Of a DNA stretch of 37,159 bases, positions 734-9,968 are shown one piece after another. Position 1 is the stretch's first letter; every line of letters starts with the position of its first letter. The notes under the pieces were generated by a model. That model was not told the origin of the DNA. It saw nothing but the letters and a program-made list of their open reading frames with translations, and made no database searches. Made by a program: the position numbers and the translations under genes. This DNA is from JACRDV01 sp024860865 [NCBI: Methanobacteriota archaeon] (GTDB lineage: Archaea; JACRDV01). Location: assembly GCA_024860865.1 (NCBI GenBank), contig JACRDV010000029.1, positions 1-37,159 of the forward strand, given 5' to 3'.

Positions 734-1252
734 TCATGCAATATAACTCATGCTAGACTTATCGAAATCAGGCACCATTTCAATATAAAGTTCTGGTTCT
801 TCTTGTGGCTGCCAGCCTAATTGCCAATCTAATGCTGGATATAATTTCTTGAAAAATTCTGTTGGATTTTTCGAAACTAGTGTAACTAAGTGGTTGGGAC
901 CAAACAAATCGAGAGCGATCTTGTATGCTATCTCCTCAGTTCTATTTTCATCGATATTTCCTAAGGAGTGAATATACTCATGGAGCAAAATATAGAACGC
1001 ATAAGGTTTAAAAAAAGAAGGATCCGCTTCATTGATTAACTTGAGAAGACTTTTATTCATAACAATAATATTTGATCCAACTGGATAAAATGCCCCAATA
1101 AAATAGCCTTTCCTAAAGCCTAGTTCGGCTAGACCTAGCGTTAGTCCAGCCCTTCCAAATCCGTAGATTTTCCGAACAGCATCCTTGACTATTTCAAAAA
1201 TATCCGCTAAACTACCCGCCTGATCGAGTCGCTCGGCGAATGACTTTACCAC
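734..1252 (-). CDS. HExxH putative metallopeptidase, 172 aa
   Basis: Residues 90-97 read LHEYIHSL, a zinc-peptidase HExxH motif (His91, Glu92, His95). Glu107 in NRTEEIAYKIA lies about 12 residues further on and could be the third ligand, as in short gluzincin-type proteins. No signal peptide or membrane helix is seen. The GTG start at 1252 has an AGGTGG ribosome site about six bases upstream. The gene is divergent from the HTH regulator at 1343 and shares its promoter region, which carries two copies of TTAACGNNGTTAA. On this strand one copy touches the TATA box and the other covers the expected start. The substrate is unknown. The HExxH motif alone does not prove peptidase activity. Confidence 0.6.
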   Translation of the reverse strand: MVKSFAERLDQAGSLADIFEIVKDAVRKIYGFGRAGLTLGLAELGFRKGYFIGAFYPVGSNIIVMNKSLLKLINEADPSFFKPYAFYILLHEYIHSLGNIDENRTEEIAYKIALDLFGPNHLVTLVSKNPTEFFKKLYPALDWQLGWQPQEEPELYIEMVPDFDKSSMSYIA

Positions 1253-1273: not shown

Positions 1274-1329
1274 TTAACGCTGTTAAAAATAAAAAGGAAC
1301 AATATTATATATAAAGTTAACGCCGTTAA
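1274..1329. promoter_or_regulatory. Divergent promoter with paired palindromic operators
   Basis: Two 13-bp palindromes, TTAACGCTGTTAA (1274-1286) and TTAACGCCGTTAA (1317-1329), lie 43 bp apart, about four helical turns. A TATA element lies between them (TTTATATA on the minus strand, 1315-1308). Read leftward, the second site abuts the TATA box with one base between, and the first covers the expected start site of the HExxH gene. Read rightward, 1317-1329 sits just downstream of the TATA element, near the expected start of the HTH gene, so that gene may regulate itself. The block 1308-1329, read on the minus strand, is identical over 22 bases to 1844-1865. Confidence 0.7.
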
Positions 1330-1342
1330 ACATGGTGATAAT

Positions 1343-1735
1343 TTGAAACCTCCATGTATGGTCGTTGTTACACAAATTTTACCTGCAATCAGAGTTATGG
1401 TGGCAAGAGAGTTAGTATACAACCATGGCTTAAAGCCAATAGAAGCCGCAGTCAAAATGGATGTTACGCCAGCGGCTATAACCCAGTATATTAAAGGTCT
1501 CCGAGGAAAATACCCGATAGAAACGATTGAGAAATCCAGAAAAGCAAAGAAAATTATATCAGAATTAACTATTGAGCTTGTAAAGGATGAAGTAGACATT
1601 ATATTTGTTTTAAATATGTTATGCAAAGCTTGCAAAGCCATTAGTTCTGAAGGCCTTCTTTGTGATCTACATAAAGAGCTAATGTTAAGTCTTAGAAAGC
1701 ACAAATGCAAAATTTGCCCCATGCTTATAAGGTAG
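1343..1735 (+). CDS. Cys-rich HTH transcriptional regulator, 130 aa
   Basis: Residues about 17-58 form an HTH domain (ARELVYNHGLKPIEAAVKMD, then TPAAITQYIKGLRG). The C-terminal half has five cysteines: Cys94 and Cys97 (CKAC), Cys107, and Cys122 and Cys125 (CKIC). They could bind an Fe-S cluster or a metal. The architecture resembles archaeal HTH regulators of the COG2522 type. The chosen start is TTG 1343, preceded by GGTGAT at 1334-1339; an in-frame ATG lies five codons further on. The gene lies against paired operators, so autoregulation is likely. It is the best candidate to bind the TTAACGNNGTTAA sites at 1.3, 1.85 and 8.5 kb. That link, and redox or metal sensing, are inference. Confidence 0.75.
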   Translation: MKPPCMVVVTQILPAIRVMVARELVYNHGLKPIEAAVKMDVTPAAITQYIKGLRGKYPIETIEKSRKAKKIISELTIELVKDEVDIIFVLNMLCKACKAISSEGLLCDLHKELMLSLRKHKCKICPMLIR

Positions 1736-1843: not shown

Positions 1844-1899
1844 TTAACGGCGTTAACTTTATATACATTTTTAGAGTAAATTATTTTTAACAGCGTTAA
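1844..1899 (+). promoter_or_regulatory. Promoter of the 552-aa gene with paired operators
   Basis: TTAACGGCGTTAA (1844-1856) is followed after one base by the TATA box TTTATATA (1858-1865). A second palindrome TTAACAGCGTTAA (1887-1899) covers the expected transcription start. Repeat spacing is 43 bp, the same as at 1274-1329. The sequence around the second site (1885-1903) also matches the minus strand around 1274-1286. The conserved geometry argues for a dimer or tetramer bound on one face of the DNA, blocking TBP and the start site. Confidence 0.7.
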
Positions 1900-1911: not shown

Positions 1912-3570
1912 ATGCCCGATAAAATCTATTTAAAAGGCTTTCCAGAAATCATGAGATTTAAACTAACAGATGATGTTCGCAATGAGATTTTTGCTGAAGC
2001 ATTTGAAAAAATGAGAGAGCAATATTTAGACGTGAGTGATTTATTAACAAATGAATCCTCAAATCACACCTTATATGGCCAATCTATACACGAGTTTGTT
2101 TTTGGAAGATTTGAAGGTAGAATTTTAAAAGTGTTAGAAGAAGCGCCTTCAACCGGCATTGAAATAGTCCAAAAAACAGGACTATCTCCAAATACTTTTC
2201 GCCATAAAATTGCAGAATTGAAAAGAAAGGGAATGATCGAACGAAGAAATGGCAAATATGGATTTATAAAGAATCCATTCGATCTAATTAAGTTCTCAGA
2301 AATAGGAAAAACTGGCAGCTTAGCACCTACACAACGTAGAAAAAAATTTCTTTCTAAAAATGATGTTAAACTTGCGATATATCTGTGGCCAAAATATAGA
2401 AAAGCATGTGCTGAGGTAGGTATCAGTCCTCTAGTCTCAAAATACGCAATAACTTATCATAATATTTTCTGTCTTGCTAATGCTATCAAAAAGTGGAGAA
2501 AAGGAAAAAACGCAACTCCAAAATGGGCCCTGATAGCATTAACAGACCTAACTCAAAAAGCAAATGAATTAAATGAGGAAGGTATAATCCAGAGCTATTG
2601 TTTGCCGGCAAGTACTCCTATAATTCCTTTTTATAATGGAAAATACAAAATTCCAATCGAAGCTGGAGAAGATTTAGACATAATAGCTATCAAACTATTG
2701 GCAAAAGGTTCAGCAAATGGAACAACTTATAACCATAAAAATAAGGAAAAATTTTTTGAAAGACTTCATGATCTTTTTGGATTTTTTGAAACTAAAAGAA
2801 ATAAAGGAGTTCCAACAACAATTCTGGAGATAATTAAAAAGCACTATAATATTCAAAATTTTGATAAAAAAGAAGCTAAAATTCCTTTAATAATAACTGA
2901 AAAATTAGAGAAATTAAAAGGCTACGAAAAGATAAAATATGAACTGAATTTATTAAAGGGAATAACCGAGCTGAGCAGCAACTATAAGGGATATTTTGAT
3001 CTAACATCTCAATCAAAGGATTTTCTAATTGGCGTATCTAAAATCGTGGAAGATTTAGGATTAGGAAAACTAACTATAATGAAAAAATTAAATAGACCTC
3101 ATTATCGATGTATGATTCCTTCTAAGAAAATTAATTTGCTACAACAAAAGGAGTTGCAATTGAAGAAATTATATGAAAACATAGAGCGAATATATCCAGA
3201 CTTTGAAATTTGGAATAAAATACCCTTAAACACAATAATAGAAAGAGCAAGGAGAAAAGACGTATTAAAATTAACACCAATAGAAGTTTTGCAACAATCC
3301 TGCAAAGAAGAGCTTTCCGATTATCTAGGTTTGATTTTAGATAGCATTAAGCGAAACACGAATAAATATATCCATAATTTTCTAGGAAAAAAGATAAACA
3401 CCTTAGAACTCCAAAAAGAAATGACAAATTATTACTGGAATAACAAAAAAATACCAAGCGCTAGAAGCGTAAAAGAATATCTGAATATGATTGAAACTAC
3501 TGGAGCAAGTGTAGATTCTGAAAAAACTTTATCTCGTTTAGGTTCTTCTTCAAATTTATTAAAACTTTAA
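1912..3570 (+). CDS. Unknown 552-aa protein with a winged-helix domain
   Basis: Family not recognised. Residues about 66-120 look like a winged helix-turn-helix (GRILKVLEEAPSTGIEIVQK, LSPNTFRHKIAELKRKG, then a wing ending KYGFIKNP). The rest is Lys-rich, mostly helical and has no membrane segment, signal peptide or obvious catalytic motif. A possible second helix-turn-helix lies near residues 490-525 (MTNYYWNNKKIPSARSVKEY). The ATG start at 1912 follows the expected transcription start by about 20 bases and lacks a strong ribosome site. The promoter carries the same paired operators as the HExxH/HTH pair upstream, so these genes probably form one regulon. A DNA-binding role is likely; anything more would be guesswork. 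Confidence 0.6.
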   Translation: MPDKIYLKGFPEIMRFKLTDDVRNEIFAEAFEKMREQYLDVSDLLTNESSNHTLYGQSIHEFVFGRFEGRILKVLEEAPSTGIEIVQKTGLSPNTFRHKIAELKRKGMIERRNGKYGFIKNPFDLIKFSEIGKTGSLAPTQRRKKFLSKNDVKLAIYLWPKYRKACAEVGISPLVSKYAITYHNIFCLANAIKKWRKGKNATPKWALIALTDLTQKANELNEEGIIQSYCLPASTPIIPFYNGKYKIPIEAGEDLDIIAIKLLAKGSANGTTYNHKNKEKFFERLHDLFGFFETKRNKGVPTTILEIIKKHYNIQNFDKKEAKIPLIITEKLEKLKGYEKIKYELNLLKGITELSSNYKGYFDLTSQSKDFLIGVSKIVEDLGLGKLTIMKKLNRPHYRCMIPSKKINLLQQKELQLKKLYENIERIYPDFEIWNKIPLNTIIERARRKDVLKLTPIEVLQQSCKEELSDYLGLILDSIKRNTNKYIHNFLGKKINTLELQKEMTNYYWNNKKIPSARSVKEYLNMIETTGASVDSEKTLSRLGSSSNLLKL

Positions 3571-7048: not shown

Positions 7049-7096
7049 TTAAATGTAGTAAATAATATAAGATTGCTCAATAGAGAATTCCTTCTT

Positions 7097-8302
7097 ATGG
7101 GAGATTTAAAAAGATTTACTTCTTCTATCCAAGCTGCAATTAAAAAACTCCAAACTTGGCCAATTAGAGAACTAACTCTATGCCATCACGACGAAGCTGA
7201 TGGGTGCACATCGGCAGCTATAACTAAAACTGCTCTCGAGAGGAGGGGCTATAAAGTAAATTTTCTTTGTATAGAGAAGTTATTTCCTCAAGTGCTTGAG
7301 AAACTTCATACGCAAAAAGGGGCTTTAATTTTTTATACAGACATTGGAGCTTTTCACTCGAAACTAATCTCTGATTTAAATAAAGGCAAAAATCTTACAA
7401 TAATTTTAGACCACCATGACACTGAGCCTTCAACTGACTCGATGGTTTTCAATTTAGATCCTGAATTGTTTGGATTTAGTGGCGAAAAAGATGCTAGCAG
7501 CGCGACTACTTGTTATCTATTTGCTAAAGAATTAGATCCAAAAAACATCGATTTAGCTCATCTTGCAATTATTGGTTCAGCTGAAATACCAGGAGATGTT
7601 ACAGGTCTTAACAAAATTCCACTTGAAGATGCACAAAAACAAGATTTAGTTGAGGTTAGTGGTACGAAGGGAAAGCAAAGGTATAAAGTTAAATTACCAA
7701 GTGGAAAAATTTCTAGCACTGAAGCTTCCAGCAAATTGTCTGCGCTTGCATCGGTTGGATATTATGAAAACGGTCCAAAACTTGCGATTAAAGCTTGCCT
7801 AGATGGGTTTGATGAAACTATTGAGAAAAAAATTTTAGAGCTCCAAGAAAAACGAAAAACTGTTAGTAAGAAAATGCTGGCAATTCTATATAAAACCAAA
7901 CTTAAAGAAACTGATCATATTCAATGGTTCCATGCTAAGGACATTTTTAAATCTATGGGTGTTAAAGTTATTGGAACCTTTTGCTCTATGTTGCGTTTTC
8001 AAACCAAATTGATTAAACTGGAGAAATACATTGTCGGGTTTATGAATATGGACCCAGTTATTCCTAGGTATGGAAAATTAGAACAACCAATGACTAAAGT
8101 TTCAATGAGAGTTCCGATTCAACTTGAAAAGTTAATTAATGCGAAGAAAATGCCCGGTGCTTCATATCTCTTGCCTGAAGCTTCAAAGTTAGTAGGTGGA
8201 TTTGGTGACGGTCATAGTTTAGCTTCTTCTTCAATTATTCCAAAAGGGCAGGAAGAAAAATTGATTGATTATATGGAATCGCTATTTAAAAATTTTTCAT
8301 AG
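7097..8302 (+). CDS. DHH-family phosphoesterase (RecJ/Cdc45-like)
   Basis: The N-terminal DHH domain shows LCHHDEADGCTSAA (first metal-binding motif), FYTDIGA and the signature ILDHHDTEP. The C-terminal DHHA1-like domain ends GGFGDGHSLASSSIIP, a variant of the usual GGHxxAAG. Such proteins are Mn-dependent exonucleases or nucleotide phosphodiesterases; archaeal RecJ-like members (GAN, Cdc45-like) associate with the replisome. The length of 401 residues fits this group. The exact substrate cannot be read from the sequence. ATG 7097 is preferred to an upstream TTG at 7073, because there is no ribosome site and a TATA-like stretch (about 7060-7067) fits a leaderless start near 7097. The gene stands alone between trpB2 and the candidate RNA. 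Confidence 0.8.
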   Translation: MGDLKRFTSSIQAAIKKLQTWPIRELTLCHHDEADGCTSAAITKTALERRGYKVNFLCIEKLFPQVLEKLHTQKGALIFYTDIGAFHSKLISDLNKGKNLTIILDHHDTEPSTDSMVFNLDPELFGFSGEKDASSATTCYLFAKELDPKNIDLAHLAIIGSAEIPGDVTGLNKIPLEDAQKQDLVEVSGTKGKQRYKVKLPSGKISSTEASSKLSALASVGYYENGPKLAIKACLDGFDETIEKKILELQEKRKTVSKKMLAILYKTKLKETDHIQWFHAKDIFKSMGVKVIGTFCSMLRFQTKLIKLEKYIVGFMNMDPVIPRYGKLEQPMTKVSMRVPIQLEKLINAKKMPGASYLLPEASKLVGGFGDGHSLASSSIIPKGQEEKLIDYMESLFKNFS

Positions 8303-8306
8303 TATG

Positions 8307-8479
8307 AAAAAGAGTTGGCAGTTGCTTTTCTTACTCGAACGATTGGTATCATGTAAACATGAAATTGCCAATTAGATCATTTGTTGGTAAGATTTAGTGA
8401 CCTAATTTGGGTAAGGGGCTTGTGAGTTTAAGATTTTTGAAGTTTGGGAGTTATAAGAACAACTGCCAACTTTTGTTAA
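8307..8479 (-). ncRNA. Candidate structured noncoding RNA under the palindrome promoter
   Basis: Read leftward from the TATA box at 8509-8502, transcription should begin near 8479. The transcript would open with AGTTGGCAGTTG (8471-8460) and close with its exact complement CAACTGCCAACT (8324-8313), followed at once by CTTTTT (8312-8307), a terminator-like U tract. The end stem extends by six more pairs (TTCTTA with TAAGAA) past a 3-base bulge. Inside, ATTGG/CCAAT and CATGT/ACATG form a nested hairpin (about 8341-8372). No protein frame of note lies here. An alternative is a small inverted-repeat element (MITE-like) about 160 bp long. The fit of promoter, stem and terminator makes an RNA gene more attractive, but no family is recognised. 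Confidence 0.4.
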
Positions 8480-8501
8480 AATAATTTAAGGATGTACCAA
8501 G

Positions 8502-8523
8502 TATAAAAAGTTAACGGCGTTAA
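8502..8523 (-). promoter_or_regulatory. Third copy of the operator-TATA promoter module
   Basis: On the minus strand the palindrome TTAACGCCGTTAA (8523-8511) is followed after one base by TTTTTATA. This differs from the 22-base block at 1844-1865 at only two positions. A half-site GTTAA (8475-8479) lies about 44 bp from the matching edge of the full site, near where the second operator lies in the other two promoters and at the expected start site. The module points left into the stem-forming stretch and not toward any protein gene. Confidence 0.6.
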
Positions 8524-8546
8524 AATTAGTTAAAAACTCTATTAAA

Positions 8547-9968
8547 CTAGCCTAAAAGAGCGGCACGGAAACCTGAAATGCAGTCTTTAGCTGATTGGAA
8601 AAGCAGGTGTTTTATTTTTGTAGGAGTTTTCAGTTTTTCTAACCTGCCAATCCTAAAATAGATCGGTGGATGTGGATCCCATGTTATCCAACTTTGGATC
8701 CTATAAGTTGGTGATCTTTCAAATTGAAGTTTTCGAAATCCAATTTTTCGTAGAGCTTCAGCCAAAACCTGCGGCTGCTCTATTTTAACTGCAGATTCAA
8801 GGTCAGCCCTTGCCTCAAAGAATTTAGCGATGAAGAAAACTATTCCCATGGCAACAAAGAGATATAATAATGGAAAGAATACAACAATTGGCCAAAACAC
8901 ATATAAGCGAAGCAAATATTCAGATGCCGTTAATACAAAGAGATTAAAGGGATCTCTTCCTTTAAGATGGCTAAACTCATGCCCTAAAACGTTAAATATC
9001 TCATATTCTTCCAATTGAACTAGCAATCCTGTAGTAATAAGTATTGTCCCATGACTCGGGCTAGGACCGGAAGCAGCTGCGTTAGGTAGCATTGTATTTG
9101 AAATGACTATTTTGGGCACCGGAAGGTTGAATCTTTCGGCAACCTTTCGCACTAGTTCATAGACATTTATTGTTTTTGTTGAGATGTTCGCTGGTATGCA
9201 TTTGATTCCATATTTAGAAAATACTTCTTCGGCAGTTTGACAGCTGAGTTCTTTACCAACAGCTAGAGTTTTTTCATAGATCTCTTTCTTCATTTCAATA
9301 ACGAGGTCTTTCCCATACTTTTGTTGAAATTCTTTATATTCTTCTACTGGCAAATGATATTGTAATAAGTGAACATTTGGATTTTTAGGTGTTACAGACC
9401 AGTTGCCTAATTTTTTTATGATTTTGTCTGAAAAAAGAACTGTCACAAACTGAAAAGCTACTATAACAATTGGCGCATAAGAACCCAAAAAATAAAACAC
9501 TAAAATACTTGCAGCAATGAAGATTATAAAAAAGAAAAGCATACTATCTGTTAAAATCCTTTCAAGAGCACTTCCACGTTTTGATGGAATTTTTTCAGGT
9601 ATAATTTCTTCGCCTTCGAGCCAGGCAAAGTAAAGAGTAGTTTTTCTAACTTTCTCTTCAAATAGCTGAACAACTATGATTAAGTCTTCTTTCAGTTGAT
9701 CTATGGCTGTTTCAGGCACATTTTCGCTTGGAGACATTTTAACTTGAATTGGTTTTACAGCTTTAATCTCAACATTAATGTACCATTTTTCTTCTGACTC
9801 AAATGCTGTGAAACAGAGGAGATGCTCATTATCTGCAGTTAATTTTTTTATGCTTGCAAAACGTTCTTTGTTAGGGAGCAGATAATACTCATTTATGAAC
9901 TTTAGCAGATCGTCAAGATGTGCTAGCGTGACTTCTGTATCTATTGTAAAACTCTCAGTTTTTCTCAT
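8547..9968 (-). CDS. M48 family membrane metalloprotease (HtpX-like) with an extra N-terminal domain
   Basis: The zinc motif VLGHEFSHLKGRDP lies at residues 328-340 and the third ligand Glu385 is in FFEARADLESA, as in M48 (HtpX/Ste24-like) proteases. Membrane helices occur at about 142-180 (two segments) and 350-382 (two segments). HtpX-type enzymes degrade damaged membrane proteins at the cytoplasmic face. The first 130 or so residues form a soluble domain not usual in HtpX (around 290 residues), so this 473-residue protein is a longer variant. The ATG start follows an AT-rich stretch with no clear ribosome site. Its 3' end lies 24 bases from the palindrome at 8523. Confidence 0.82.
   Translation of the reverse strand: MRKTESFTIDTEVTLAHLDDLLKFINEYYLLPNKERFASIKKLTADNEHLLCFTAFESEEKWYINVEIKAVKPIQVKMSPSENVPETAIDQLKEDLIIVVQLFEEKVRKTTLYFAWLEGEEIIPEKIPSKRGSALERILTDSMLFFFIIFIAASILVFYFLGSYAPIVIVAFQFVTVLFSDKIIKKLGNWSVTPKNPNVHLLQYHLPVEEYKEFQQKYGKDLVIEMKKEIYEKTLAVGKELSCQTAEEVFSKYGIKCIPANISTKTINVYELVRKVAERFNLPVPKIVISNTMLPNAAASGPSPSHGTILITTGLLVQLEEYEIFNVLGHEFSHLKGRDPFNLFVLTASEYLLRLYVFWPIVVFFPLLYLFVAMGIVFFIAKFFEARADLESAVKIEQPQVLAEALRKIGFRKLQFERSPTYRIQSWITWDPHPPIYFRIGRLEKLKTPTKIKHLLFQSAKDCISGFRAALLG

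What the first reader, a model, noticed from the sequence alone, without database searches (positions are those of the whole stretch)
8307..8523. A third copy of that promoter module drives a candidate stem-closed noncoding RNA
Leftward from 8523, operator, TATA box and expected start lead into a stretch whose ends pair perfectly over 12 bases (8460-8471 with 8313-8324), extend by six pairs past a 3-base bulge, and are followed at once by a U tract. A nested hairpin lies inside. A half-site GTTAA lies close to the predicted second-operator position. So the regulon may include a structured RNA of about 170 nt ending just before the convergent DHH gene.
Basis: partly seen in the sequence, partly recalled or inferred. 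Interest (0 to 1): 0.78.

Follow-up and report, generated by a model that had tools for sequence, protein, structure and literature searches.

The report
Repressor-controlled candidate small archaeal RNA
In an uncultured archaeon, a switch protein that appears to control its own gene also seems to control a short stretch of DNA with no convincing protein code that looks like a small regulatory RNA; the switch is well supported by sequence, the RNA itself is not yet proven.

Summary
Reading leftward from 8523 there is a perfect operator (TTAACGCCGTTAA), a TATA box at a fixed distance, a half-operator near the expected start, a 12-bp perfect end stem (8460-8471 with 8313-8324), an inner hairpin and a U tract four bases short of the DHH stop. 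The full promoter module has exactly four matches in the 1.54-Mb draft genome, all without mismatch. The likely operator binder is the 130-aa Cys-rich HTH protein at 1343-1735: of 30 distinct fetched relatives, 28 carry the matching palindrome upstream of their own gene, and its outer bases follow the recognition helix.

The RNA reading is weaker. The stem beats shuffles (3 of 1500 reach 12 bp), but both strands fold about equally far above chance, so only the promoter points to the minus strand. I found no convincing homologue in 74 other archaeal genomes, no Rfam family, no second copy, no significant target; no transcript data were available. It does not look like a MITE: single copy, no target-site duplication. 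Best reading: a lineage-specific, repressor-controlled intergenic sRNA of about 165-174 nt, comparable to sRNA154 of Methanosarcina mazei, which has a potential NrpRI operator.

The parts
8511..8523 (-). Operator 1, TTAACGCCGTTAA, perfect palindrome but for its centre base
   Evidence: one of four exact matches of TTAACGNCGTTAA in 1.54 Mb, each with a TATA box at the same spacing.
8502..8510 (-). TATA element CTTTTTATA next to operator 1
   Evidence: same spacing in all four modules.
8474..8479 (-). Degenerate second operator (half-site TTAACA), overlapping the expected transcription start
   Evidence: aligns with TTAACAGCGTTAA of the other three modules; right half not kept.
8307..8480 (-). 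Candidate small RNA, about 165-174 nt; start inferred from the TATA box, end from the U tract
   Evidence: Fold of 8307-8479 -37.8 kcal/mol, z -5.9, z -5.7 with 1000 shuffles; no Rfam match at gathering score. Transcription itself not shown.
8460..8471 (-). 5' arm of the end stem
8313..8324 (-). 3' arm of the end stem
8307..8311 (-). U tract, putative terminator
   Evidence: Sequence.
8385..8459 (-). C-rich, G-poor stretch (23 C, 3 G of 75); 8419-8457 folded alone has no stable structure on the minus strand; possible pairing region
8370..8407 (-). Inner hairpin, 10 pairs (8398-8407 with 8370-8379)
1343..1735 (+). Regulator: 130-aa HTH protein with conserved cysteines, likely operator binder, probably autoregulated
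1274..1329 (-). Promoter module between the HEXXH gene and the regulator (two operators, 43 nt apart)
1844..1899 (+). Promoter module of the 552-aa gene (two operators, 43 nt apart)
734..1252 (-). 172-aa protein with HEYIH motif, predicted regulon member
   Evidence: no Pfam family and no meaningful NCBIfam match.
1912..3570 (+). 552-aa protein with weak winged-HTH matches, predicted regulon member
7073..8302 (+). DHH-family gene, convergent; four bases separate its stop from the U tract
8547..9968 (-). M48 peptidase gene upstream on the same strand; 23 bases separate its stop from the operator

Best explanation
A 130-aa Cys-rich helix-turn-helix repressor (1343-1735) binds TTAAC-N3-GTTAA palindromes next to the TATA box of its targets. 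Of its four full promoter modules in this genome two serve protein genes, one (contig C149) leads into short reading frames, and the fourth (8523, minus strand) reads into a 165-174 nt intergenic RNA whose ends are held together by a 12-bp stem and which stops at a U tract just short of the convergent DHH gene. When the repressor's signal (probably redox or metal, guessed from the cysteines) releases it, the RNA is made; its unpaired C-rich stretch would then pair with G-rich mRNA stretches such as ribosome-binding sites. Shown by sequence comparison: operator, TATA spacing, the link between operator and regulator family, the stem, the lack of a convincing reading frame. Inferred: repression as the mode, transcription, start and end, signal, and action by base pairing.
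For: Four full modules, zero mismatches, no other within 3 mismatches in the genome; three of the four lie in the window. 28 of 30 distinct relatives have the palindrome within 120 nt upstream, against 0.017 expected each; 5 of 5 with helix TPAA[IV]T have TTAAC..GTTAA and 23 of 24 with TQA..S have ATAAC..GTTAT. HTH_3 matched by 12 of 12 members of an alignment I chose, at E <= 1, best 8.9e-6. End stem 3 of 1500 shuffles; fold z -5.9. Minus-strand frames touching the element have only 24 and 27 codons, plus-strand ones 25 and 36.
Against: Plus strand folds to -53.9 kcal/mol with z -5.5, minus to -37.8 with z -5.7; interior z -2.6 and -2.5, so structure does not choose the strand. No convincing homologue among 74 other genomes (best E 0.35) and, by DNA, only one 31-nt match among 100 others. 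Second operator is degenerate. No start-region target stands out. No transcript data.
Confidence: 0.55

Rival explanations
1. Orphan or decaying promoter: a copy of the module was duplicated into the gap between two convergent genes and drives nothing that matters; the stem is fortuitous or a by-product of convergent termination.
For: The stretch resembles the module at 1831-1892 over 62 nt at 77% identity; second operator degenerate; no homologue of the RNA found; perfect 12-bp stems of this loop size occur by chance about 1.6 times per window.
Against: Operator 1 and TATA box are perfect although the second operator is not; stem reached by only 3 of 1500 shuffles of the stretch; fold z -5.9.
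Confidence: 0.22
2. The structured RNA lies on the plus strand, as the 3' UTR or terminator of the DHH mRNA or as a short RNA of its own; the minus-strand promoter then makes an antisense to it.
For: Plus strand forms 67 pairs including 16 G-U, -53.9 kcal/mol, 0 of 200 and 0 of 1000 shuffles as good; in a scan of 617 stretches of 173 nt on both strands one other reached -53.9; branch 8419-8457 folds only on plus (12 of 1000); the stem on plus is also followed by TTTTGTT; an AT-rich TATTTAAAAA at 8283-8292 could serve as a TATA box (sequence).
Against: The plus strand is richer in G and U, which lowers the energy of its shuffles too; z is no better than for minus, and falls to -3.1 for the wider stretch 8290-8546. 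No operator-linked promoter on plus. In two Bathyarchaeota the DHH gene is followed after only 57 and 115 nt by a purF-like frame (my reading of the translations), which leaves no room for such an element (no stem search was run there).
Confidence: 0.14
3. The transcript encodes a very short peptide.
For: The C149 module leads into short frames (31, 32 and 76 codons). Minus-strand frames of 24 and 27 codons exist here.
Against: I see no GGTG-type ribosome-binding site before these two frames (by eye); both lie in the 3' part and run on past the U tract.
Confidence: 0.06
4. A MITE or other palindromic mobile element inserted by the promoter.
For: Terminal inverted repeats of 12 bp.
Against: No second copy found in its genome by DNA search or covariance model; the two other exact copies of the 11-bp arm (C124, C130) lie inside stop-to-stop frames of 344 and 112 codons without a partner arm in the 3 kb fetched; no direct repeat at the flanks of 8313-8471 (sequence).
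Confidence: 0.03

Closest known systems
sRNA154 of Methanosarcina mazei (PMC3177094, PMC5867862; passages read)
   Same: Archaeal intergenic RNA of similar size (130 nt there) with a potential operator of a transcriptional repressor (NrpRI, GGTA-N6-TACC) in its promoter region; [quoted passage not shown]
   Different: Other operator and, as far as I know, other repressor family. sRNA154 is backed by Northern blot, deletion and targets and is conserved in Methanosarcina. Here nothing is shown beyond sequence and no relative of the RNA was found.
RyhB/IsrR-type metal-controlled sRNAs of bacteria (recalled; of IsrR I saw only the start of an abstract in a search listing)
   Same: Repressor-controlled sRNA with C-rich unpaired stretches, if the present regulator senses metal or redox state.
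   Different: Bacterial, Fur-controlled (recalled); the signal of the present regulator is guessed from conserved cysteines only.
XRE/HTH_3-type repressors (PF01381)
   Same: HTH_3 match in 12 of 12 aligned members at E <= 1; palindrome upstream of the own gene, as expected of autoregulation.
   Different: Window protein scores below the Pfam cut-off (14.4 against 23 bits); C-terminal conserved cysteines; no meaningful NCBIfam match.

Membership tests
Repressor-controlled archaeal intergenic sRNA (sRNA154 kind) | Operator of an identified regulator in the promoter | tested here: met
   (by sequence; binding and repression not tested).
Repressor-controlled archaeal intergenic sRNA (sRNA154 kind) | Intergenic and without a credible coding frame | tested here: met
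   four frames of 24-36 codons touch the gap; I judge none credible.
Repressor-controlled archaeal intergenic sRNA (sRNA154 kind) | Stable structure beyond chance on the transcribed strand | tested here: inconclusive
   Minus z -5.7 but plus z -5.5; interior z about -2.5 on either strand.
Repressor-controlled archaeal intergenic sRNA (sRNA154 kind) | Discrete regulated transcript | not testable with these tools
   No RNA data held.
Repressor-controlled archaeal intergenic sRNA (sRNA154 kind) | Pairs with target mRNAs | tested here: inconclusive
   Best of 34 start regions -23.4 kcal/mol, near the 1st percentile (-23.6) of 300 mid-gene controls; of 11 chosen stretches the best was matched by 21 of 500 shuffles, uncorrected.
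Repressor-controlled archaeal intergenic sRNA (sRNA154 kind) | Conserved in relatives with compensatory changes | tested here: inconclusive
   No relative found; no other genome of the phylum held.
Known RNA family (Rfam 15) | Score at or above a gathering threshold | tested here: not met
   none in the window; best sub-threshold score 18.6 bits, E 2.7, cut-off 47.
MITE | Several dispersed copies | tested here: not met
   (own genome, about 92% complete).
MITE | Target-site duplication | tested here: not met
   Flanks 8303-8312 and 8472-8481 share no direct repeat at the element's ends (by eye).
MITE | Terminal inverted repeats | tested here: met
   12 bp.
5' leader / riboswitch | Gene downstream on the same strand | tested here: not met
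   The next gene downstream, DHH, is convergent.

The most novel reading that the evidence does not exclude
A redox- or metal-sensing regulator family, widespread in the searched Bathyarchaeota-class genomes and without a Pfam or NCBIfam model of its own that I could find, controls in this lineage a dedicated trans-acting sRNA whose C-rich stretch blocks ribosome-binding sites: an archaeal counterpart of RyhB-type sparing RNAs.
Probability: 0.15. Interest if true: 0.7.

Novelty: new member of a known kind. Interest (0 to 1): 0.45.

Why it matters
To my knowledge few archaeal small RNAs have a known transcriptional controller. Here a likely controller, its operator and its full-module sites in the genome can be written down from sequence, so the RNA reading is directly testable. 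The operator-to-recognition-helix code of a regulator family found in 199 of 256 searched genomes is useful in itself for annotating regulons in uncultured archaea.

Tried and rejected
MITE: rejected on copy number and flanks. Known RNA family: no match at gathering score in the window; five weak sub-threshold matches around the element, all far below cut-off. tRNA or tmRNA: none in the window. Viral origin of the regulon: no relative of the regulator, HEXXH protein or 552-aa protein was confirmed in viral contigs by the pattern-based search, and the exact module pattern has no match there. Conserved position after DHH: in Bathyarchaeota BA2 and Kmv02 DHH is followed by another gene after 115 and 57 nt. 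Regulon conservation beyond the regulator's own gene: HEXXH relatives occur in 172 of 256 genomes, but 0 of the 20 loci fetched carry the operator, so the wider regulon looks lineage-specific. In 12 chosen genomes with related regulators TTAACNNCGTTAA occurs in 9; I read about 100 bases on either side by eye and made no systematic search for a similar RNA there. Target search: not significant. Bacterial-type promoter and terminator scan: one promoter-like site, no terminator, of little meaning for an archaeon. Folding with DNA parameters: z -2.4, 5 of 200, not pursued. A covariance model from the single sequence found the element itself on both strands and no convincing other match; its hits at E 0.35-0.96 in 4 of 75 genomes and at E 0.99 or more are taken as chance and were not followed. 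One search, a search for the stem pair in the window, returned nothing only because I allowed gaps of 100-130 where the real one is 135. Solved structures: no match better than E 0.088 to the regulator profile (single sequence E 0.69). Literature: five searches (one search listed 12 of 629 papers) showed no title or abstract start on this regulator or RNA; only open-licence papers are held, so this is weak evidence of absence.

Full report
Setting. The window is contig C129 of a 1.54-Mb archaeal genome in 160 contigs, about 92% complete, and a search of its phylum held only this genome. The two named DHH relatives that a pattern-based search confirmed lie in Candidatus Bathyarchaeota BA2 and Kmv02 at 47-48% identity. 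The finding lies in a 244-nt gap between two convergent genes: DHH (+, ends 8302) and an M48 peptidase (-, ends 8547).

The promoter. TTAACGNCGTTAA occurs without mismatch at 1317, 1844 and 8511 of the window and at C149:2336, and nowhere else in the genome. Extended with the TATA box to TTAACGNCGTTAACTTTNTATA it has exactly four matches, all with zero mismatches, although three were allowed; the reversed control pattern gave 1 forward and 4 reverse matches. In the three other modules a second operator, TTAACAGCGTTAA, follows at 43, 43 and 37 nt, about where transcription should start. At 8523 only its left half, TTAACA, remains, at 44 nt. Two of the other modules lead into protein genes close behind: HEXXH 734-1252 and the 552-aa protein 1912-3570. 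C149 leads into short frames behind a leader whose fold (z -1.9, 6 of 200 shuffles as good) pairs the stretch around a ribosome-binding site.

The regulator. The 130-aa protein at 1343-1735 begins 14 bases after one operator. A profile of it and two relatives matches 199 of 256 genomes of BA2's class. I examined 32 loci, the 29 new ones that delivered plus three; two were duplicates. Of the 30 distinct upstream regions 28 hold an NTAAC-N3/4-GTTAN palindrome within 120 nt of the start, against an expectation of 0.017 each from the rest of the same loci. The outer base pair follows the recognition helix: all 5 proteins with TPAA[IV]T, the motif of the window protein, have TTAAC..GTTAA, and 23 of 24 with TQA..S have ATAAC..GTTAT. 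The two without a site are L068 (TQAAVS) and L033 (helix motif not found). L071 and L074 have a four-base spacer. This identifies the window protein as the binder of the 8511-8523 operator about as firmly as sequence can; these relatives are related to each other, so the 28 are not independent events. Its cysteines C94 and C97 (31 of 31), C107 (28), C122 (24) and C125 (29) are conserved in the 31 rows; those rows, the window's included, had been selected for the N-terminal P[PS]C motif, so C5 says nothing. A redox or metal signal is my guess. HTH_3 is matched by 12 of 12 members of an alignment I chose at E <= 1, in the window protein only weakly (E 0.04, below Pfam's cut-off). That it represses rather than activates is inferred from operators that flank the TATA box and start site.

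The element behind the 8523 promoter. The end stem, inner hairpins and U tract are as described. A 12-bp perfect inverted repeat is unremarkable in a 37-kb window but was reached by 3 of 1500 shuffles of this 173-nt stretch. The 11-bp arm occurs exactly at two other places in the genome (C124, C130), in open frames and without a partner in the 3 kb fetched. The DNA search of the genome found no second copy, only the related module at 1831-1892. No recognised RNA family reaches its threshold. A covariance model found nothing at E below 0.3 in 74 other genomes (75 of the 257 handles then in question were given, and the tool's stricter filters applied). A DNA search of 100 other archaeal genomes gave one 31-nt match. 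Covariation therefore cannot be tested.

Which strand? The plus strand folds to -53.9 kcal/mol with 67 pairs, the minus strand to -37.8 with 41. The plus strand is richer in G and U, so its shuffles fold better too: z is -5.5 against -5.7, and for the interior alone -2.6 against -2.5 (one search gives -6.2 for plus with 200 shuffles). For the wider plus stretch 8290-8546 z falls to -3.1. One branch (8419-8457) exists on plus only (12 of 1000 shuffles). On minus the same stretch has no stable fold of its own and the surrounding 8385-8459 is C-rich (23 C, 3 G), which would suit a pairing loop but might equally be the shadow of a plus-strand purine bias. Both strands have a U-rich run after the stem. 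Only the promoter speaks for minus.

Function. Duplex energies of the C-rich stretch with 34 start regions did not differ on average from 300 mid-gene stretches (-11.3 against -11.1 kcal/mol); the best, gene 17753 at -23.4, lies near the first percentile of the controls. Against 11 chosen stretches, the start regions of the 552-aa gene (21 of 500 shuffles as good) and of HEXXH (33 of 500) were the best, not significant after correction for 11. No target is claimed.

Precedent. M. mazei sRNA154 is an archaeal intergenic RNA of 130 nt with a potential NrpRI operator in its promoter region, shown by Northern blot and deletion (PMC3177094, passages), with two predicted loops, one carrying anti-RBS sequences (PMC5867862, passages). 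What is described here would work like it; membership cannot be claimed without a transcript.

Verdict. Observation confirmed; regulon and its likely regulator strongly supported by sequence; small RNA plausible (0.55), strand and function open.

Noticed in passing
window 1343-1735; loci L047-L075, L032, L034: A regulator family for which I found no Pfam match above cut-off and no NCBIfam model has a clear operator code: helix TPAA[IV]T goes with TTAAC-N3/4-GTTAA, TQA..S with ATAAC-N3-GTTAT. Could be used to map regulons across these archaea.
   Followed up: partly
L079, L086, L084 (relatives with the TPAAIT-type helix or similar): Two operators lie 20-22 nt apart beside the regulator gene; in L079 and L086 an ATG-started frame in the opposite direction to the regulator begins right after the second operator.
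   Followed up: no
L013:2336-2846 (C149): The fourth module leads into a leader whose fold pairs the ribosome-binding-site region of a 32-codon frame, followed by a 76-codon frame; no family found for either frame.
   Followed up: partly
window about 540-696 and L013:3206-3604: Very similar frames with a CxxCH haem motif and alike C-termini lie near two of the modules (C129 and C149); compared by eye.
   Followed up: no
window 734-1252: 172-aa HEYIH protein without a Pfam family, with relatives in 172 of 256 searched genomes of BA2's class: a conserved, apparently unannotated family; 'zincin-like' is recalled from the motif.
   Followed up: partly
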